This document shows, one piece after another, positions 18-9,062 of a stretch of 64,000 bases of DNA (positions are counted from its first letter, which is position 1; each line of letters starts with the position of its first letter). This stretch comes from Acidovorax sp. SUPP3334. Its GTDB lineage: Bacteria; Pseudomonadota; Gammaproteobacteria; Burkholderiales; Burkholderiaceae_C. The notes beneath the pieces were generated by a model. It ran no database searches. It worked only from the letters and a program-made list of their open reading frames with translations, and was not told the origin of the DNA. The stretch is from assembly GCF_030159055.1 (NCBI RefSeq), contig NZ_BQXQ01000016.1:1-64000 (forward strand), read 5' to 3'. A program made the position numbers and the translations under genes.

Positions 18-647
18 GTTCCGGCCAGTGCGCATATCCCAGTGATCTAGACTTACAGCAGTTCGTGTATGGTTGGTGGTAGAGTTCCGGCCAGTGCGCA
101 TATCCCAGTGATCTAGACTTAGCAGCCGCAACCACCGATCTTGGTGCCGGTTCCGGCCAGTGCGCATATCCCAGTGATCTAGACTAGCAGCGATGTGTGG
201 TACGCTGAGGCTTGGGTTCCGGCCAGTGCGCATATCCCAGTGATCTAGACTGGTGGTTGCATAGGCGGAGCATCGAACACTGTTCCGGCCAGTGCGCATA
301 TCCCAGTGATCTAGACTATGGAGTCTTCACAGTACCGCCCAACACGAGTTCCGGCCAGTGCGCATATCCCAGTGATCTAGACTGCCGGAGCGTTACGCGT
401 CCGGCTCGGCTGCGTTCCGGCCAGTGCGCATATCCCAGTGATCTAGACTGGCTTATTGATACTGGTAGCTTGTAAGGAGGTTCCGGCCAGTGCGCATATC
501 CCAGTGATCTAGACTAGAGTTGCGTTATTTGAACACAGCAAAGGCGTTCCGGCCAGTGCGCATATCCCAGTGATCTAGACTCGTAGAGGTGTATGCATCC
601 TCCAAGGCCTGGTTCCGGCCAGTGCGCATATCCCAGTGATCTAGACT
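18..647 (+). CRISPR. Type II-C CRISPR array, 10 repeats
   Basis: Ten identical 36-bp repeats start at 18, 84, 150, 216, 282, 348, 414, 480, 546 and 612, each beginning GTTCCGGCC and ending ATCTAGACT. The nine complete spacers are all exactly 30 bp, giving a strict 66-bp period. Bases 1-17 are part of another spacer, so the array continues left of the window. The + strand is taken as crRNA sense because the tracrRNA anti-repeat near 5199-5226 is its reverse complement. The last six repeat bases, TAGACT, resemble a -10 box in the position where Neisseria II-C repeats carry one; that promoter role is inference. Transcription would run towards cas2, convergent with the cas genes. Confidence 0.97.
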
Positions 648-658
648 CTGATCGCGAT

Positions 659-685
659 AACCCCTTGATTCGTCAAGGGGTTTTT
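659..685 (+). terminator. Rho-independent terminator after the CRISPR array
   Basis: AACCCCTTGA, a TTCG loop, TCAAGGGGTT and then TTT form a strong hairpin with a T-run on the + strand only. It lies 11 bp after the last repeat, so it fits termination of a pre-crRNA transcribed left to right and shields cas2 from convergent transcription. Confidence 0.85.
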
Positions 686-718
686 CGCTTCTACAGTCCA
701 GTAAAACATTGCGTCCGG

Positions 719-1072
719 CTAGAAAAGATCGAACTGGTCAGGCGCTTTTTGCACAGGCTGACGGCGGTGGCCGTGGAAGGAGATGGCTCGCTCATACTGC
801 TTATCAGTGAACTGGAAGATATGCACTTTGCCCCCGGCCGGCAAGGCCTGCTCCACCTGCCGGCAAAGGGTGTCCACCTGGGCCTGGCTGGTGCAAAAGC
901 GCAGGTAAACGCTGAACTGGCTCATTTGGAAGCCCACGTCCAGCAAGGCATTGCGAAAGCCCGTGGCCGCCTTGCGTTCGGCTTTGGTAATCACAGGCAG
1001 ATCGAACATTACCACCATCCACATGAGTCGGTACCCCGTCAGCATAGTTGCAATCCTGTCGGTTGGCGTCAC
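719..1072 (-). CDS. cas2: CRISPR-associated endonuclease Cas2
   Basis: 117-residue Cas2, which with Cas1 forms the spacer-integration complex. It has the expected ferredoxin-like start, with a hydrophobic strand MWMVVMFDLPV whose Asp is the usual metal-site residue, then the helix with ERKAATGFRNALLDVGF and SVYLRF. Length is normal for type II Cas2. Its start overlaps the cas1 stop by 4 bp (ATGA), so the two are translationally coupled. It is the last cas gene before the array. No csn2 or cas4 is present, which makes the locus subtype II-C. Confidence 0.95.
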   Translation of the reverse strand: MTPTDRIATMLTGYRLMWMVVMFDLPVITKAERKAATGFRNALLDVGFQMSQFSVYLRFCTSQAQVDTLCRQVEQALPAGGKVHIFQFTDKQYERAISFHGHRRQPVQKAPDQFDLF

Positions 1073-1998
1073 TCAGGATCGAAGCTCCCCGCCAATGACA
1101 GCGGCAATCCGGGCAGGGGCAAGTCGAGCCGAAGACGTTCTCCCAGGTACACCTGGGCCAGCGAAGTGGCCATGCGCTGCATGCACACCATGACGGGGGT
1201 TACTCCCTGCTGGGTTTGCATGTCGTCGTACAGCACGCGCACCAAGGCGCGTTTGGTATCGGGCGTGACGTGGGCCTCGCCCGCCCGGTACAGTTGCCAG
1301 ACCTTGAGGTCCACCACTGGGCGGAAGGGCTCCATCAGGTCGTCCACCAGCCGCATGGGGTTGGCATCATTGCTGTGATGCAGGCCCAGACTGGGATGCA
1401 GGCCGGCGGCCACCACGGCCCGGGCGGTGGCCGAGCGCAGCACGGTGTAGCCGTAGTTGAGCAAGGCATTCAAGCCATCGCCATCTTGGTCGCGCCGAAA
1501 GTCCGCACCGAACAGCAGGCCCCAGTAGCGCCGTGCGCCCTGTCCTTCGATGTTTTCTGGATCGCCGCTGCGCACCTTGCCCACCAGGGCCAACAGCGGG
1601 GCAGTGGCGGCGCCCGCAGCCTCCAGCGCGGCGGCCTGCTGCTCCAGCTTGGCCTTCACCACCGTGGCCCACAGGCGCTTGAGCAAGGGCAGGCCGGCGG
1701 CCAATTGCGCCTCGATGCGCTTGGCCTGCACGTGGTGGCCGTCGATGGGCAGCAGCATGCCGACGGCGTTGTGGTTGGCGCCGCAAAGCACGAAGGGCGC
1801 ACCGCGTTCGGCCAGGGCCACCAGCAGATTGTTGGTGTAGCTCAGGCCGTGGGCGTTGGCGATGACTGCCGCCACGTCGTCCAAGGGGACCTGGCCCAGC
1901 TCCTTGCGCTCGCCTTCGGTGTCTCGAACGACGAGGAACCCCCGGTGCATGAAGAGGTGCCGCCTGTCGTCCGCGATTTCGACGATGCGGCCGACCAT
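1069..1998 (-). CDS. cas1: CRISPR-associated endonuclease Cas1
   Basis: 309-residue Cas1 integrase, the catalytic subunit of spacer acquisition. The C-terminal alpha-helical domain carries the metal-binding residues: a Glu near residue 151 in PENIEGQGARRYW, a His in GLHPSLGLHHS, and an Asp/Glu pair in RLVDDLMEPFRP. The N-terminal beta domain starts directly with GRIVEIADD. It sits 6 bp after the cas9 stop and overlaps cas2, so cas9-cas1-cas2 is one operon in the minimal II-C order. Confidence 0.96.
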   Translation of the reverse strand: MVGRIVEIADDRRHLFMHRGFLVVRDTEGERKELGQVPLDDVAAVIANAHGLSYTNNLLVALAERGAPFVLCGANHNAVGMLLPIDGHHVQAKRIEAQLAAGLPLLKRLWATVVKAKLEQQAAALEAAGAATAPLLALVGKVRSGDPENIEGQGARRYWGLLFGADFRRDQDGDGLNALLNYGYTVLRSATARAVVAAGLHPSLGLHHSNDANPMRLVDDLMEPFRPVVDLKVWQLYRAGEAHVTPDTKRALVRVLYDDMQTQQGVTPVMVCMQRMATSLAQVYLGERLRLDLPLPGLPLSLAGSFDPE

Positions 1999-2004
1999 CG
2001 TGCG

Positions 2005-5000
2005 TCAGCCCTGGAACCCCGGATCGCGCAACTCGCCGATGGGGGAGATCGTGACTTGGCGGGCCTTGGCTTTCTGGAAAGATCCGACCATTTTGGAGAC
2101 ATAGGGCAACTCGCCGCTCCTGTTGCGCGCATCCACGTTGGCTTGATTAACCTCTGACATGAAGACCTGTCCCGCTACGGACATCTTCGCCACTCGAAAG
2201 GTTTGCAAGATTCCCTCACCTGTTTCCAGCCGCACGCTATCGCCAATCACCAGCCGCATGGCCAATGCCTTGCCGTTCTGTCCTCGGCCAATGTGTCGCA
2301 GCTGTCCCAGCCCGCCTGCCCGAACGATGCGGTACGCCTCGAACGTGGAAATAACCTGTCCTTCCCACTTACCCTTGTCGTTGACGGTGATCTCGATGCA
2401 ATAGTTGCTGCCGCCCACATAGCCCTTGTACGGCAACGGCCGGCCTTCGGCATCCACGCCATGGCGCTGGGGCTGGCCGGGCTCGGCGATACGGATGAGG
2501 TTGCTGATCTCTCGCCCAGCGCTGCCATCGGCCTTGCGGCGTTGTCTGATGCTGCCGTCGCGTAGGATGCCGTAGCTGGTCTCCTCCATCATGGCGCCTT
2601 CGTAGCCGTGGTCGGGTTTGTGGCTGACCCAGATGTGGCCTACGGCGCGCTCCACGTGGGCACGGTAGGTGGGCCAGGGCATCGGCATGTCCTCGACGAG
2701 GCGCGTCAGGCCGTTGTCGCGGGCCAGGGCGTTGGCATGGGCGAAGCGCTGCATCAGGCCCTGGTCAGTGACGCCGATCACGCAGGCATCGACCGCGTGG
2801 TGGCGGTGGTCGTTACGGTTCTTTTCACCGTTCAGGCCCAGCACGTCGTTCAGGCCGAACTTGCCACGCAGCAGCGCCGTCATCTGGCCGGGAATCACGC
2901 GGGTGGCGCTGCCGGGGCACACCAGCCGCAGATATTCGGCTGCCACGCGAGAAAGGTAGCGTGTGTCGTTGAGCGCACGGGCCAGAAAATCCTTGTCCTC
3001 GCCCAGCCAGCGTTCGTAGCCGTCGGGTGCGAAGCGGTAGCGCTTACGCAACGGCATGCGCTCCGCGCGTTCCAGGATGCCGTCATAGCTCCAGCCCTGG
3101 GACTCGAAGTCGGCTCGAGCATCCCAGGGCGTGCGGTTACGCTTGATGCGGTTGGCTTCGCGCAAGGCCACCGTGCGGTTGTTCAGGCTGTCGTCCAGCG
3201 TCATGGAAAACGGCAGGATGTGTTCGATCTCCACGCGCTCACACAGCAGCATGGCCGCGCTGATCTGCACGCCGCTATAGGGACAGCGCCTGTCTGCGGC
3301 GTCGTGGCTTAACTCCTCCCACAAGATCCATTTCTGGATGTCCAACGTGCGCACCCGCTCTTCGCTGATGCTCAGCACCTCGGAGATGGAGCGGCGGATG
3401 CGCGCATTGCGCCTCTGGTTGTCCGCCTGTCGCTGCTGGGCCTCCAGCTTCTGTTCACGGCTCTGCTTGAGGTCGCGCGCCAGCTCGATCACCACCTCGG
3501 CGGGCCGGCCGTAGCGGCGAATCAGTGCATTGACCACCGTGCGCAACTGGTTCAGCCCGATGTGGACGGTGGGGTTGGCGATCTTGCCATAGCGCTTTTC
3601 TTCCGCGTCTTCGGGTTTGCCACTGCCGAAGGCCACGTGGCGCTGCAGTGCCCGGCCGTAGTAGGGCAGTTGCCTCCAGGCGTGGACCGCTTTGATCTCT
3701 CCAGTGGAGGCGATGGTGCGTTCGCCGATGCATTCCACCTCGTCATCACCGTGGTCGAAGTTGAACCCCAGGTCGCTGTGGTGCACAAACCCGGCCGCCT
3801 GCACGGCCTTGTCGTAGGTAACGACGTCGCGCCGCAGCTCTGGCACGATGCGCGCAAGCGCCGTGCGGCCCAGACTGCCGTAGCCTTCGGGCAGGCCGGC
3901 ATTGGCAATGGCCTGCGCCCTCGCTTCATCCACGCCAGTGTGCGCCTGCAGCCAGGCGACCAGGCACTGTTCGCTTTCCTCGGTCATCAACTGCGTGACG
4001 ATCTCGTCCTGCAGCGCGGCGTCGAAGCCCACCCACAGGGGGCCGAACAGGTCCTTCTTGCCCAGCGCCGCCGCTGTGGCATTGCCCTTGAGACCGTCGC
4101 GCTTTGCATCCTCCAAGTTGAAAAGCGCCGAGAAGCCCAGCGCTTTGCGCATGGCAGTGAAGGTCACCTTGGCCTGCTTTTCCAGCAGCGCCACGATCTG
4201 GTCGCGCTGCGGCAGAGTCAGCGTTTCCTCGCGCAGATCGCCATGCAGTACGCGGAGGTGGTTAACTTCCTGATAAATGCGGAAGCGCTGCGTGCTGGGC
4301 AGCGCCAGCAGGGCGCGCGGCTCGTCGGGCACAAGGGTGCAGCGGCCGGGCTTCACGGGCCGCAGCTTGCGCTGGTGCAGCAAGGTGTCGCGCAATTCGG
4401 CACGGGCGGCCTCGTTGAACAGCGCGGGGTTGAAGGCCGCCTGCGCGGCCCACAATGCATCGAACTCCTGCGCCACCATGGCGCGATCGACATACAGGTC
4501 GTAGCGCTTATCGATGCGCTTCTTGCCTTCGTCGGTGGTCAAGGGCGTTTCGCGGTAGCGGGCGCGCACACCCTGATCTCTCACGCCTTCCGGCTTCTGC
4601 TCCATTCGCGCTTTCCAAAACCATTCACCTACGGTGCGGCAGCCAGATTCATGCATCTGCGCACGCAGCGTGCCGATGGCCTGCTTGAGCGCACCGCTAT
4701 CACTGTCTTTGCGGTCGGTCTTGCGATTGCTCTGAAAACCCCGGCGCTGGTTCAGGTGAAAAAGAGCCCGGCCGAATTCCTCCGGTGTCAGCGCAGCTTC
4801 CAACCCGCGTGCGCGCAGCGCATAGGGATTGAGCTTTTCTAACGCTTTGCGGGTCGCCTCGTCCTGTGGGAAGAAGCCACGCCGTTCCAGGGCCGCCAGC
4901 ATGCGGGCCTTGCGTTTGAGCAGCCGGTCACGCCGCCGTCGCATGGCACGCGCAGCACGGCGGGTTACCGCGAGAGAAGAGCCATCTTTTGGATTGCGGC

Positions 5001-5136
5001 CGTCACTGAAGATGCGCACGCCTGCTTTGATGATCGCGGAAGGATCCCCCTGCGTGTTAAGCCGGAACAACGCCCAGCCCAGCGAAGTCGATCCCAGATC
5101 GAGTGCCAACCGATACACCATTTTTCCCGGCTGCAT
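2005..5136 (-). CDS. cas9: CRISPR-associated endonuclease Cas9 (type II-C)
   Basis: 1043-residue RNA-guided nuclease of the compact II-C class. RuvC-I is LALDLGSTSLGWALF with Asp13; RuvC-II is VVIELARDL with Glu551; RuvC-III is HHAVDACVIG with Asp783. The HNH domain reads VEIEHILPFS with His639 and later Asn662 in REANRIKRN. The residue before the catalytic His is Glu638 where most Cas9 proteins have Asp. An Arg-rich bridge helix (RRAARAMRRRRDRLLKRKAR) follows RuvC-I. The start at 5136 is supported by GGGAGG six to seven bases upstream; a second in-frame ATG lies at 5121. Together with Cas1-Cas2, a tracrRNA and an array this appears complete. Confidence 0.97.
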   Translation of the reverse strand: MQPGKMVYRLALDLGSTSLGWALFRLNTQGDPSAIIKAGVRIFSDGRNPKDGSSLAVTRRAARAMRRRRDRLLKRKARMLAALERRGFFPQDEATRKALEKLNPYALRARGLEAALTPEEFGRALFHLNQRRGFQSNRKTDRKDSDSGALKQAIGTLRAQMHESGCRTVGEWFWKARMEQKPEGVRDQGVRARYRETPLTTDEGKKRIDKRYDLYVDRAMVAQEFDALWAAQAAFNPALFNEAARAELRDTLLHQRKLRPVKPGRCTLVPDEPRALLALPSTQRFRIYQEVNHLRVLHGDLREETLTLPQRDQIVALLEKQAKVTFTAMRKALGFSALFNLEDAKRDGLKGNATAAALGKKDLFGPLWVGFDAALQDEIVTQLMTEESEQCLVAWLQAHTGVDEARAQAIANAGLPEGYGSLGRTALARIVPELRRDVVTYDKAVQAAGFVHHSDLGFNFDHGDDEVECIGERTIASTGEIKAVHAWRQLPYYGRALQRHVAFGSGKPEDAEEKRYGKIANPTVHIGLNQLRTVVNALIRRYGRPAEVVIELARDLKQSREQKLEAQQRQADNQRRNARIRRSISEVLSISEERVRTLDIQKWILWEELSHDAADRRCPYSGVQISAAMLLCERVEIEHILPFSMTLDDSLNNRTVALREANRIKRNRTPWDARADFESQGWSYDGILERAERMPLRKRYRFAPDGYERWLGEDKDFLARALNDTRYLSRVAAEYLRLVCPGSATRVIPGQMTALLRGKFGLNDVLGLNGEKNRNDHRHHAVDACVIGVTDQGLMQRFAHANALARDNGLTRLVEDMPMPWPTYRAHVERAVGHIWVSHKPDHGYEGAMMEETSYGILRDGSIRQRRKADGSAGREISNLIRIAEPGQPQRHGVDAEGRPLPYKGYVGGSNYCIEITVNDKGKWEGQVISTFEAYRIVRAGGLGQLRHIGRGQNGKALAMRLVIGDSVRLETGEGILQTFRVAKMSVAGQVFMSEVNQANVDARNRSGELPYVSKMVGSFQKAKARQVTISPIGELRDPGFQG

Positions 5137-5154
5137 GAATTACCTCCCTGTTGT

Positions 5155-5183
5155 TTGCCGTTTGTAACGGATTCGGGTAAATT
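5155..5183 (+). promoter_or_regulatory. Predicted tracrRNA promoter
   Basis: TTGCCG (5155-5160), a 17-bp spacer and TAAATT (5178-5183) form a plausible sigma70 promoter on the + strand, with a start near 5190, just ahead of the anti-repeat. Its boxes interleave with those of the cas9 promoter on the other strand, so the two polymerases could not bind at once. Confidence 0.5.
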
Positions 5184-5188
5184 CGCAA
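5161..5188 (-). promoter_or_regulatory. Predicted cas9 operon promoter
   Basis: On the minus strand TTGCGA (5188-5183), a 16-bp spacer and TACAAA (5166-5161) give a sigma70-like promoter with four of six matches in each box. Transcription would start near 5154, leaving a short leader with the cas9 ribosome site. It overlaps the predicted divergent tracrRNA promoter base for base. Inferred by eye. Confidence 0.45.
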
Positions 5189-5189
5189 A

Positions 5190-5280
5190 CACTTAGTTCA
5201 CTGGGATATGCGCTCTGGACGCTAACAAGCTGAAAGATGCACCAAATGGAAGGCCCCGCATGCGGGGCCTTCGTCATTTT
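5190..5280 (+). ncRNA. tracrRNA
   Basis: Bases 5199-5226 are nearly the reverse complement of the CRISPR repeat: CACTGGGATATGCGC is shared with one mismatch after it, then CTGGACGCTAAC pairs imperfectly with the repeat start GTTCCGGCCAG, leaving the small internal loop typical of crRNA:tracrRNA duplexes. The tail follows at once (AAGCTGAAAGATGCACC) and ends in the perfect palindrome AAGGCCCCGCATGCGGGGCC plus TT, then CGTCATTTT as terminator. The gene diverges from cas9. The 5' end is estimated from the promoter; the 3' end from the terminator. Its last 56 bp are duplicated at 6254-6309. Confidence 0.9.
5220..5275 (+). repeat. 56-bp direct repeat, copy 1 (tracrRNA tail)
   Basis: Bases 5220-5275 are identical to 6254-6309 over all 56 positions. 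Copy 1 is the 3' part of the tracrRNA. The two copies bracket the NYN gene; identity stops exactly at the last anti-repeat bases on one side and after CTTCGTC on the other. Confidence 0.97.
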
Positions 5281-5336
5281 AGAAGCACCGCGTATATGCG
5301 AATGCGGTCCATTGGCTGGGCCACCCGCCATCATCG

Positions 5337-6026
5337 TCACCAATGCAAAGGCTTGCTGGCAGGTTTCTTCTTGGTTGCAACATGCTGCGGCAACTGTGAC
5401 TGAGCCAGTTCATCTTCCCGAATGTGATGGCGCACCCAGTGAGCCAGGGCAGTGAGCCGCTTGTTGGGTACTTTGCCTTTTTCTGTGTCCTTGTCACGCA
5501 GGGGCATGACCAACCCCAGTCTGGCCGCTGGCACGTCCTCTCGGATCATTCGAAGGGCAGGCTCCAGATCGCTGTCATTGGAGCAGATCACCAGTTGATC
5601 GCATGCGCCACGCACTGCATCACGGTAAGCATGCAGCGCAATATTTACATCGGTCTGCTTTTCTTCGATCATCCAAACACGCGAAACGCTGTCTTTGGAG
5701 GGGGCGGAGCCTTCCTGATAACTTGGCAGGGACGCCAGCCCGAAGATGTGGAATCCATTGATGACTTGGACGAGCCCAGGGCCGTGAGCTTGTAGCGCGC
5801 GGAGATATTGGGTTTGAGCCCGAGATGACGCATCTCCATGCCGGGCGTAAGCCGCTTTGACTGGCGCCGTGAAATATTTGATGGATATAACGGTTGCGCT
5901 GGGGTCTTGCGGTGACAGGATGCAATCACGAAACAGCGTAGCGATGTCCAACCATTTGTACGGCGTACCCTTGAGACGGGAGTAGTAGAGGTTGTAGCCG
6001 TCGATGTAGATATAGGTTCTCGTCAA
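5337..6026 (-). CDS. NYN-domain (LabA/DUF88-like) putative ribonuclease
   Basis: About 229 residues. The N-terminus RTYIYIDGYNLYY is the first acidic motif of NYN/PIN-like nucleases, with later acidic residues in EEKQTDVNIALHAY and the hallmark ICSNDSDLEPALRMIRED, followed by GLVMP. Proteins of this fold cut RNA with metal ions; the substrate here is unknown. The C-terminal tail is basic (ATKKKPASKPLHW). The start TTG at 6026 was chosen because a terminator-like hairpin lies just upstream at 6043-6069 and GGTGGGA precedes it; an ATG at 6098 would give 253 residues with the hairpin inside the gene. It sits between the tracrRNA and a partial tracrRNA copy, so a link with CRISPR RNA is possible but unproven. 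Confidence 0.8.
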   Translation of the reverse strand: MTRTYIYIDGYNLYYSRLKGTPYKWLDIATLFRDCILSPQDPSATVISIKYFTAPVKAAYARHGDASSRAQTQYLRALQAHGPGLVQVINGFHIFGLASLPSYQEGSAPSKDSVSRVWMIEEKQTDVNIALHAYRDAVRGACDQLVICSNDSDLEPALRMIREDVPAARLGLVMPLRDKDTEKGKVPNKRLTALAHWVRHHIREDELAQSQLPQHVATKKKPASKPLHW

Positions 6027-6042
6027 TGCTGTTCCCACCAAT

Positions 6043-6069
6043 AAAAAGGCCACCTTGCGGTGGCCTTTT
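6043..6069 (-). terminator. Hairpin with U-run in the NYN gene leader (attenuator-like)
   Basis: On the minus strand AAAAGGCCACC, loop GCAA, GGTGGCCTTTTT is a strong intrinsic-terminator shape lying between the predicted promoter (extended -10 TGCTAAAAT, box at 6125-6120) and the likely start at 6026. It would attenuate NYN expression or block read-through from metH. The same hairpin also works on the + strand. Confidence 0.6.
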
Positions 6070-6165
6070 CGCCCTAAACCAAGCCAACTGAATGACACGG
6101 CGAAGGGATTGTGGACCAGATTTTAGCAAAGTGATACGGCTGATTTTATATCATCATAGGGCACT

Positions 6166-6192
6166 TTGCGAAGGTAGAAATTTTTCTATAAT
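6166..6192 (+). promoter_or_regulatory. Promoter of the tracrRNA-like RNA
   Basis: A perfect TATAAT lies at 6187-6192, with TTGCGA at 6166-6171 (15-bp spacer) or TTTGCG at 6165-6170 (16-bp spacer) as the -35 box. The predicted start is 6198-6200, about 21 nt before the GTTCCGG at 6221. The AT-rich stretch stands out in a GC-rich region. Confidence 0.6.
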
Positions 6193-6198
6193 TTCATA

Positions 6199-6315
6199 TG
6201 TGTTTGCCATGTGCGAAGGTGTTCCGGCGCGGGTTGTTATGCAATTCCGTTGGCGCTAACAAGCTGAAAGATGCACCAAATGGAAGGCCCCGCATGCGGG
6301 GCCTTCGTCTCTTTC
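6199..6315 (+). ncRNA. Candidate natural single-guide-like RNA (second tracrRNA copy)
   Basis: From the predicted start there are about 21 nt of unique sequence (to 6220), then GTTCCGG (6221-6227), identical to the first seven bases of the CRISPR repeat. A small hairpin follows (GGGTTG 6231-6236 pairing with CAATTCC 6242-6248, loop TTATG), then GCGCTAAC (6253-6260) and a tail identical to the tracrRNA. GTT can pair with AAC and GCGC with GCGC, or the CG/CG of the true duplex can form, so one RNA holds guide, repeat-like strand, loop and tracr-like strand. This is the order of an engineered sgRNA and of the S. pyogenes long tracrRNA. Transcription and Cas9 binding are inferred, not shown. It could instead be a decayed duplicate. 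Confidence 0.55.
6254..6309 (+). repeat. 56-bp direct repeat, copy 2 (tracrRNA tail)
   Basis: Exact copy of 5220-5275, lying 12 bp beyond the metH stop. It keeps the tail and the perfect palindrome but not the anti-repeat. Recombination between copies would remove the NYN gene and leave an intact tracrRNA. Confidence 0.97.
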
Positions 6316-6320
6316 AAGGT

Positions 6321-9062
<2,742 letters not shown>

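What the first reader, a model, noticed from the sequence alone, without database searches (positions are those of the whole stretch)
6166..6315. Candidate natural single-guide RNA next to a type II-C locus
Seen directly: a perfect TATAAT at 6187-6192; about 21 nt later GTTCCGG, identical to the first seven bases of the CRISPR repeat; a small hairpin; CGCTAAC, the end of the tracrRNA anti-repeat; and a tail identical to the tracrRNA including its terminator palindrome. The order guide - repeat start - loop - anti-repeat end - tracr tail is that of an sgRNA in one transcript. Known parallels are the S. pyogenes long tracrRNA, which directs Cas9 to its own promoter, and F. novicida scaRNA; I know of none in II-C. 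That it is transcribed, binds Cas9 and has a regulatory target is inference.
Basis: partly seen in the sequence, partly recalled or inferred. Interest (0 to 1): 0.88.

Follow-up and report, generated by a model that had tools for sequence, protein, structure and literature searches.

The report
Self-silencing natural Cas9 single-guide RNA
A bacterium of the Acidovorax group appears to carry, next to its CRISPR-Cas9 genes, a ready-made single-guide RNA whose nine-letter seed points Cas9 back at the guide's own promoter, probably as an on/off control, and in two relatives guide and target have changed together.

Summary
In detail: 6187-6312 has a TATAAT, a 22-nt guide-like stretch, GTTCCGG, a hairpin, CGCTAAC and a tracrRNA tail. 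The nine bases just before GTTCCGG (6212-6220, TGCGAAGGT) recur 45 nt upstream, over the putative -35 of the element's own promoter (6167-6175). Two genus relatives carry the same second tail beside the same gene. There both copies of the nonamer have changed in step (TGCGGAGGT, TGTGGAGGT), while synonymous sites in the neighbouring gene differ at dS about 1. Protospacers of three sister arrays have T at +6 in 9 of 10 cases; all six self-sites found have T at +6, and the guide's own gene has G there. Three further natural sgRNAs with self-sites were found, one (with a G:T wobble) at a cas9 start. I conclude that this is a natural sgRNA of a type II-C system, encoded apart from the tracrRNA, that directs Cas9 by a short seed to a promoter region: its own, and possibly the divergent promoter of an NYN gene that matches a candidate defence family (HEC-09). 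Transcription, Cas9 binding and repression are inferred. New variant of the streptococcal tracr-L kind; a Cas9-controlled defence switch is possible but unproven.

The parts
6167..6175 (+). self-target site of the guide seed (TGCGAAGGT), over the putative -35 of the sgRNA promoter
   Evidence: identical to 6212-6220; covaries with it in G014 and G009; with NGNNAT behind it unique in the genome
6176..6183 (+). PAM-like 3' flank AGAAATTT (T at +6)
   Evidence: T at +6 in 9 of 10 protospacers of sister arrays and in all six self-sites found
6187..6192 (+). -10 box TATAAT of the sgRNA promoter (TATACT and TACACT in the two relatives)
   Evidence: alignment; no good -35, and not listed by the promoter scan
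6199..6220 (+). predicted guide, about 22 nt; seed 6212-6220
   Evidence: start inferred from the -10 box
6221..6227 (+). repeat-derived 5' half of the lower stem, GTTCCGG
   Evidence: identical to the first 7 bases of the CRISPR repeat; invariant in three genomes
6228..6253 (+). short hairpin in place of the long repeat:anti-repeat duplex
   Evidence: folds of the three homologues keep a stem although only 8/26 columns are invariant
6254..6282 (+). anti-repeat end CGCTAAC and nexus region of the tracr tail
   Evidence: identical to tracrRNA 5220-5248
6283..6306 (+). terminator palindrome, shared with the metH side
   Evidence: present beside metH in two relatives without a cas9 match
5188..5275 (+). 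ordinary tracrRNA (anti-repeat about 5193-5226, tail, terminator); ends approximate
   Evidence: cofold with the repeat, -68.6 kcal/mol
18..647 (+). CRISPR array, 10 repeats of 36 nt, cut by the contig end
2005..5136 (-). cas9, 1043 aa
   Evidence: TIGR01865 562.9 bits; HNH_4 and RuvC_III
1069..1998 (-). cas1
   Evidence: TIGR03639 236.3 bits
719..1072 (-). cas2
   Evidence: TIGR01573 64.3 bits
5337..6038 (-). NYN-domain gene (start GTG 6038 or TTG 6026), candidate defence family HEC-09
   Evidence: PF01936 1.2e-7; PADLOC HEC-09 1.2e-29; dN/dS 0.06-0.07
6040..6114 (-). structured leader RNA of the NYN gene with a terminator-like hairpin
   Evidence: 11 of 24 predicted pairs have compensatory changes in 11 sequences
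6120..6128 (-). extended -10 TGCTAAAAT of the divergent NYN promoter (TGCTACAAT in G009)
   Evidence: 38, 38 and 39 nt from the self-site in the three genomes; leader start fits other NYN genes

Best explanation
6199-6312 encodes a natural single-guide RNA of the type II-C Cas9. It is a duplicate of the tracrRNA in which the long repeat:anti-repeat duplex has been replaced by a short hairpin joining a repeat start to an anti-repeat end, so that it needs no crRNA and (by inference) no RNase III. Its 9-nt seed, next to a PAM with T at +6, brings Cas9 to 6167-6175, between the divergent promoters of the sgRNA and the NYN gene. Nine pairs allow binding but not cutting (recalled Cas9 behaviour, and the streptococcal precedent). 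Bound Cas9 covers the putative -35 of the sgRNA promoter and shuts off its own guide; it also abuts the NYN promoter and may repress it. Expression then depends on how much free Cas9 there is. Shown: anatomy, joint change of seed and site, PAM match, recurrence in other genomes. Inferred: transcription, Cas9 loading, repression, effect on NYN.
For: Seed and site are identical within each of three genomes but differ between them (TGCGAAGGT, TGCGGAGGT, TGTGGAGGT), always exactly 45 nt apart, although dS in the adjacent gene is 0.95-1.21. PAM: T at +6 in 9 of 10 distinct protospacers of G009, G007 and G014 spacers; T at +6 in all six self-sites, and G at +6 behind each guide in its own gene, which would spare the gene. 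Scan of 43 tail copies: 31 repeat-like starts, of which 6 have a self-match of 8 nt or more: five natural sgRNAs (window, G009, G014 with 9 nt; G324 11 nt; G316 10 nt) and one repeat-on-repeat artefact. G012 has a 10-of-11 match with one G:T wobble directly upstream of its cas9 start. Random guide ends in the six loci reach 9 nt with T at +6 in 29 of 2345 trials. No other match to the guide's 3' 20 nt with up to 3 mismatches in the genome. GTTCCGG and tail are invariant while the hairpin sequence changes.
Against: No RNA data. No consensus -35, and the promoter scan does not list it. The full-length fold pairs part of the guide. The short form is known from only three genomes; the scan of genome contigs found one true example, which is G014 again. 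The window's own 10 spacers gave no phage hit, so its PAM is inferred from Cas9s 88-89% identical (78-87% in the C-terminal part). One of 10 Acidovorax-array protospacers lacks T at +6, and so does the single one from the distant G022 Cas9. Nine bases plus T at +6 is not rare in the genome: 5 sites, and 8 for the reversed control pattern. The PAM-distal guide part is also conserved in the trio (9/11 columns), which the seed model does not explain. In G324 the TATAAT is 47 nt before the junction, so its guide part would be about 40 nt. The site may be conserved partly because it is a -35 box.
Confidence: 0.8

Rival explanations
1. Cas9-controlled defence switch (CrePA-like): the real output is the NYN gene. 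Cas9 with the sgRNA keeps the divergent NYN promoter down; when Cas9 is lost or blocked by an anti-CRISPR, the NYN nuclease is made and halts the infected cell.
For: NYN sits between tracrRNA and sgRNA in all three short-form genomes; it matches PADLOC HEC-09 and is under strong purifying selection; the distance from the NYN extended -10 to the site is 38/38/39 nt although only 12 of 36 columns between are invariant. [quoted passage not shown]
Against: The site lies about 40-70 nt upstream of the predicted NYN transcript start, next to but not over its core promoter. NYN genes have the same kind of leader in genomes where they were not seen near a tracr tail, so NYN does not need Cas9 in general. 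HEC-09 was correlated with phage susceptibility in one Pseudomonas set (PMC12447246, passage). No toxicity data.
Confidence: 0.3
2. Plain negative autoregulation without other output: the sgRNA only limits itself, holding a small share of Cas9 in a non-cutting form.
For: The site covers the putative -35 of the sgRNA promoter in the trio and lies in the upstream promoter region in G324 and G316.
Against: A loop with no output is hard to keep over dS about 1; in G012 the site is at cas9, which is an output.
Confidence: 0.4
3. Decayed duplicate tracrRNA whose tail survives only as the metH terminator.
For: The terminator stands beside metH, also in G015 and G002, which have no cas9 match at E up to 1e-20.
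Against: In those two the anti-repeat end and most or all of the nexus are absent; in the trio they are invariant over 55 columns together with GTTCCGG, and seed and site change together.
Confidence: 0.04
4. The nonamer pair is a chance or promoter-internal direct repeat (for example a regulator's double site) unrelated to Cas9.
For: About 1.2% of random guide ends match as well (29 of 2345); the first copy overlaps a possible -35.
Against: In the trio, G324 and G316 the repeat ends exactly at the guide/repeat junction and is followed by T at +6; of the other 26 candidate junctions only one (the G034 artefact, C at +6) has a match of 8 nt or more.
Confidence: 0.05

Closest known systems
Streptococcal long tracrRNA (tracr-L, natural sgRNA of type II-A)
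   Same: One RNA that acts as a natural single guide; short stretch complementary to a promoter (9 bp per PMC8730458, passages; 11 nt per PMC11417352, passages) beside a PAM; regulation, not cutting.
   Different: Type II-C; in the window a gene separate from the tracrRNA; repeat duplex cut down to a short hairpin; the target is its own promoter region next to an NYN gene instead of Pcas. G012, G316 and G324 keep a longer repeat part, and G012 targets its own cas9 leader.
Francisella novicida scaRNA
   Same: Small RNA beside a Cas9 locus that guides Cas9 by partial pairing (15 bp) to the 5' untranslated region of a lipoprotein operon and represses it (PMC8730458, passages).
   Different: scaRNA pairs with a separate tracrRNA; here the tail is in the same RNA, and the site is at its own promoter.
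Neisseria meningitidis scaRNA (type II-C)
   Same: Type II-C locus-linked RNA that binds Cas9 and is proposed by its authors to act like an sgRNA, from likeness of secondary structure (PMC13431127, passages).
   Different: Described as a post-transcriptional regulator of efeO mRNA; its transcription is reported not to be regulated by Cas9 or tracrRNA; the passages read mention no seed site in its own promoter.
CreR (types I and V-A) and CrePA
   Same: crRNA-like RNA makes the CRISPR effector repress a cas promoter (CreR) or a protein toxin gene (CrePA) (PMC12737573, passages).
   Different: Cas9 and a single-guide RNA here; NYN toxicity and its repression are not shown.

Membership tests
tracr-L type natural sgRNA | guide, repeat part, anti-repeat and tracr tail in one predicted transcript | tested here: met
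   (sequence only; no RNA data)
tracr-L type natural sgRNA | seed of about 9-11 nt matching a promoter region beside the PAM | tested here: met
   9 nt plus T at +6
tracr-L type natural sgRNA | target is the cas operon promoter | tested here: not met
   site is between the sgRNA and NYN promoters; at the cas9 start only in G012
tracr-L type natural sgRNA | long and short tracr from one locus | tested here: not met
   two tails about 1 kb apart (1034 nt in the window) in the window, G009 and G014
tracr-L type natural sgRNA | Cas9-dependent repression | not testable with these tools
   no expression data
F. novicida scaRNA | pairs with a separate tracrRNA | tested here: not met
   only a short repeat start is left for such pairing and the element carries its own tail
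ordinary tracrRNA | anti-repeat complementary to the CRISPR repeat | tested here: not met
   identity with the tracrRNA starts only at CGCTAAC (6254); no stretch like 5193-5226
CrePA | guide RNA directs the effector to the promoter of a protein toxin gene | tested here: inconclusive
   site is 38-39 nt from the NYN -10; toxicity not tested
CreR | crRNA-like RNA of a type I or V-A system repressing cas | tested here: not met
   the system is type II
Type II-C CRISPR-Cas locus | cas9, cas1, cas2, array and tracrRNA together | tested here: met
Type II-C CRISPR-Cas locus | no csn2 or cas4 | tested here: inconclusive
   no room for them between array and metH, but the contig ends in the array and only five window proteins were scanned

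The most novel reading that the evidence does not exclude
A Cas9-operated alarm in a type II-C system: a dedicated natural single-guide RNA makes Cas9 hold down, by a 9-nt seed, a two-way promoter region that drives the guide itself and an NYN nuclease of a candidate defence family. Loss or inhibition of Cas9 would release the nuclease. It would be a Cas9-based counterpart of CrePA (I know of none, and searches listed none), with the guide in the minimal single-guide form that engineers later invented.
Probability: 0.3. Interest if true: 0.93.

Novelty: new variant of a known kind. Interest (0 to 1): 0.82.

Why it matters
Cas9 autoregulation by a natural sgRNA was described in streptococci (type II-A; passages). 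My searches of the held open-licence library for tracr-L with Cas9 and type II-C, and for two or more of natural sgRNA, long-form tracrRNA, tracr-L, type II-C and self-repress, returned no paper; of the 13 papers listed I read passages of two. The original tracr-L paper is not held. If right, such RNAs extend to type II-C, occur in three genera of the family sampled here, can be split into a gene of their own with a trimmed hairpin, and can change seed and site together. The neighbourhood of a candidate defence gene bears on the open question, put in a 2025 review, whether systems like CrePA couple with other CRISPR types. It also gives a natural design of a compact II-C sgRNA and a PAM lead (T at +6).

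Tried and rejected
Chance repeat: rejected because seed and site change together and the same layout recurs in other genera. Decayed tracrRNA or mere metH terminator: rejected, see rivals. Promoter called by the scan at 6172-6143 on the minus strand: set aside, because the conserved element there is TGCTAAAAT at 6128-6120. Similarity of the guide to the tracr/cas9 promoter (TGTTTGCC near 5152): not kept in the G014 and G009 guides, so rejected. L059 and L060 matched the pattern only through an ordinary anti-repeat. G034: array remnant abutting a tracr tail, no cas9 match. Rfam: nothing reached its gathering score in 5000-6500. PDB by sequence: no relative of the NYN protein at E up to 0.01. 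Viral contigs: one ordinary tracr tail for one exact pattern. Plasmids: no match to 6160-6320 at E up to 1e-6. Pfam and PADLOC: no hit for the frames between cas9 and sgRNA in G316.

PAM count, what was left out: phage hits H3, H4, H7, H8, H40 and H42 were not fetched; further hits to spacers already counted (H11-H17, H23-H36, H38, H74, H75, H77) were not fetched; H2, H76 and H78 were fetched but gave no ungapped match of 83% or more to a spacer; H9 and H43 look like CRISPR arrays; the plasmid search with the G007 array listed 30 of 701 records, mostly IS5 transposases, and none was used. The G022 protospacer (G at +6) was counted apart because its Cas9 is 59% identical. The G014, window and G022 arrays were searched in phages only; the 10 spacers of G337 were not searched. 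Some tail loci (for example G337, G269, G395) did not pass the motif filter and are not in the 43.

Full report
The element. Window 6187-6312 carries TATAAT, a stretch of about 22 nt, GTTCCGG, a hairpin, CGCTAAC and a tracr tail. The tail is 59/61 identical to that of the tracrRNA at 5220-5280. The locus has an array 18-647 (cut by the contig end), cas2, cas1, cas9 (TIGR01865, 562.9 bits) and the tracrRNA upstream of cas9 on the other strand; this gene set is that of type II-C. Between tracrRNA and candidate lies an NYN-domain gene on the minus strand; beyond the candidate is metH. The window is G000:C16 of a 4.98-Mb genome; a genome of the same genus, G014, is an uncultured Acidovorax (its contig is identical to L061 over 8000 bases). 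The repeat and tracrRNA form a long duplex; the candidate keeps only its lower end and replaces the rest by a short hairpin, as engineered sgRNAs do (recalled).

The self-site. The last nine bases of the guide, 6212-6220, recur at 6167-6175, 45 nt upstream, overlapping the putative -35. TGCGAAGGTNGNNAT occurs once in the genome, at this site. TGCGAAGGTNNNNNT occurs five times, against 8 for the reversed control pattern; of the other four, one lies in a tRNA-Gln gene and three in open reading frames. No other place matches the guide's 3' 20 nt with up to 3 mismatches.

Relatives. Of 17 genomes of the genus, 6 have a cas9 match at E up to 1e-20 (G000, G007, G008, G009, G012, G014) and 7 have a tail match at E up to 1e-6, the seventh (G015) to the terminator only. 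Of the 6, three (G000, G009, G014) have the second tail, the NYN gene and the short sgRNA. In all three the guide's last nine bases equal a nonamer exactly 45 nt upstream, but the nonamer differs: TGCGAAGGT, TGCGGAGGT, TGTGGAGGT. Two positions have thus changed on both sides. The adjacent NYN gene has dS 0.95-1.21 and dN/dS 0.06-0.07, so synonymous sites are near saturation. GTTCCGG is 7/7 and CGCTAAC plus tail 55/55 invariant; hairpin 8/26; spacer upstream of the site 12/36; site 7/9, PAM flank 5/8, seed 7/9; the PAM-distal guide part 9/11, which I cannot explain. Stems of the hairpin are kept by pairing. G015 and G002, without a cas9 match, keep the terminator palindrome beside metH but not the anti-repeat end, so the latter is not needed for a metH terminator.

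Recurrence. The tail was searched in 60 relatives (13 with a match), 399 genomes of the family (27), 17 of the genus (7), 61 of the genus of G324 (3), 3 of the genus of G316 (1) and 399 of the order (11); these sets overlap and the cut-offs differ. One exact-pattern scan of genome contigs gave 3 stretches, of which one (G014 again) is real. Among 43 distinct tail copies that passed a motif filter there were 31 repeat-like starts; 6 had an anchored self-match of at least 8 nt: the trio (9 nt), G324 (11 nt), G316 (10 nt) and one repeat-on-repeat artefact in G034. G012 has a long-form sgRNA (nearly whole repeat, loop, anti-repeat) whose guide matches, 10 of 11 with one G:T wobble, a minus-strand site directly upstream of its cas9 start codon. 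An inverted-repeat scan of 44 copies flagged 7 at 12 of 16 or more: the G012 and G316 long forms, the G034 array remnant, and three weak ones in the cas9 coding region (L040, L105 and the window's own tracrRNA); it did not flag the more degenerate G324 (six named here, and I count no other). In G316 the contig ends within the first 35 or so codons of cas9. Random guide ends reach 9 nt with T at +6 in 29 of 2345 trials, so a single case would be weak; the coincidence of several, with joint change of seed and site, is not.

PAM. Spacers from the arrays of G009, G007 and G014 (132 of the 177 extracted) gave 10 distinct protospacers in phages and plasmids. T stands at +6 in 9 of 10, against 11 of 90 at other positions (P about 5e-8 for one position, before allowing for 10 positions and 4 bases). 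The exception is AGCAGCGCCA. The window's own spacers gave no phage hit. One protospacer from G022, whose Cas9 is 59% identical, has G at +6. All six self-sites (AGAAATTT, GGAGATTA, AGAAATTA, AGGGATAT, GGAAATTT, GGAAATAA) have T at +6; the sequence after each guide in its own gene has G at +6, which would spare the gene from its own perfect guide.

Mechanism. Nine to eleven pairs beside a PAM suffice for the streptococcal natural sgRNA to make Cas9 a repressor (9 bp in PMC8730458; 11 nt in PMC11417352; passages read). I infer the same here: Cas9 with the sgRNA sits on the sgRNA promoter and limits it. The NYN promoter is close: its conserved extended -10 (6128-6120) lies 38, 38 and 39 nt from the site in the three genomes. 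Cas9 there would abut, not cover, its core. NYN matches the candidate defence family HEC-09 (1.2e-29). HEC probably stands for Hma-embedded candidate; such genes were named by guilt by embedding and several have shown antiviral activity (PMC12988326, passages), but HEC-09 was correlated with phage susceptibility, not resistance, in one Pseudomonas set (PMC12447246, passage). A Cas9-controlled defence switch is therefore open, at about 0.3.

NYN cassette. Homologues at E up to 1e-10 occur in 28 of 399 family genomes, the window's included. Of 22 NYN leaders extracted, 16 share a GTCATT core. In 11 leaders that I chose from these, a two-hairpin RNA ending in a terminator-like stem is supported by compensatory changes in 11 of 24 pairs. 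The cassette is thus probably older than its place beside the sgRNA.

Limits. No RNA or binding data; promoter positions are inferred; the short form rests on three genomes; the literature search covers open-licence papers only, and the original tracr-L paper was not held.

Noticed in passing
window 6040-6114 (-); leaders in L067, L068, L070-L072, L077, L078, L080: A conserved two-hairpin RNA ending in a terminator-like stem precedes NYN (HEC-09-like) genes, also where no tracr tail was seen nearby; 11 of 24 pairs show compensatory changes in 11 chosen sequences. It resembles an attenuator or an RNA-plus-terminator layout like that of type III toxin-antitoxin loci (the latter recalled).
   Followed up: partly
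L062 about 100-830 (-): In G316 short open frames with no Pfam or PADLOC hit, possibly one gene broken by a frameshift, lie between cas9 and the natural sgRNA, in the place where NYN lies in the window.
   Followed up: partly
L030 4670-4700: The G012 guide contains TGCGAAGGTGT, the window's seed and junction, followed by about 8 extra bases before TCCGG; the guide may have been retargeted from its own promoter to cas9 by an insertion.
   Followed up: no
L010 and L012 near 1500: Two genus members without a cas9 match keep the terminator palindrome beside metH, either a trace of a lost CRISPR locus or the ancestral metH terminator.
   Followed up: partly
L035 about 6550-6700: In G034 two CRISPR repeats, the last one degenerate, abut a tracr tail with no cas9 match in the genome; possibly how natural sgRNAs arise.
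   Followed up: no
L087 300-6200: The G007 CRISPR array region appears to contain IS5-family transposase sequences (plasmid hits).
   Followed up: no
L117 1-115: An IMG/VR contig starts with a tracrRNA-like tail, near a frame that looks by eye like a phage lysozyme.
   Followed up: no
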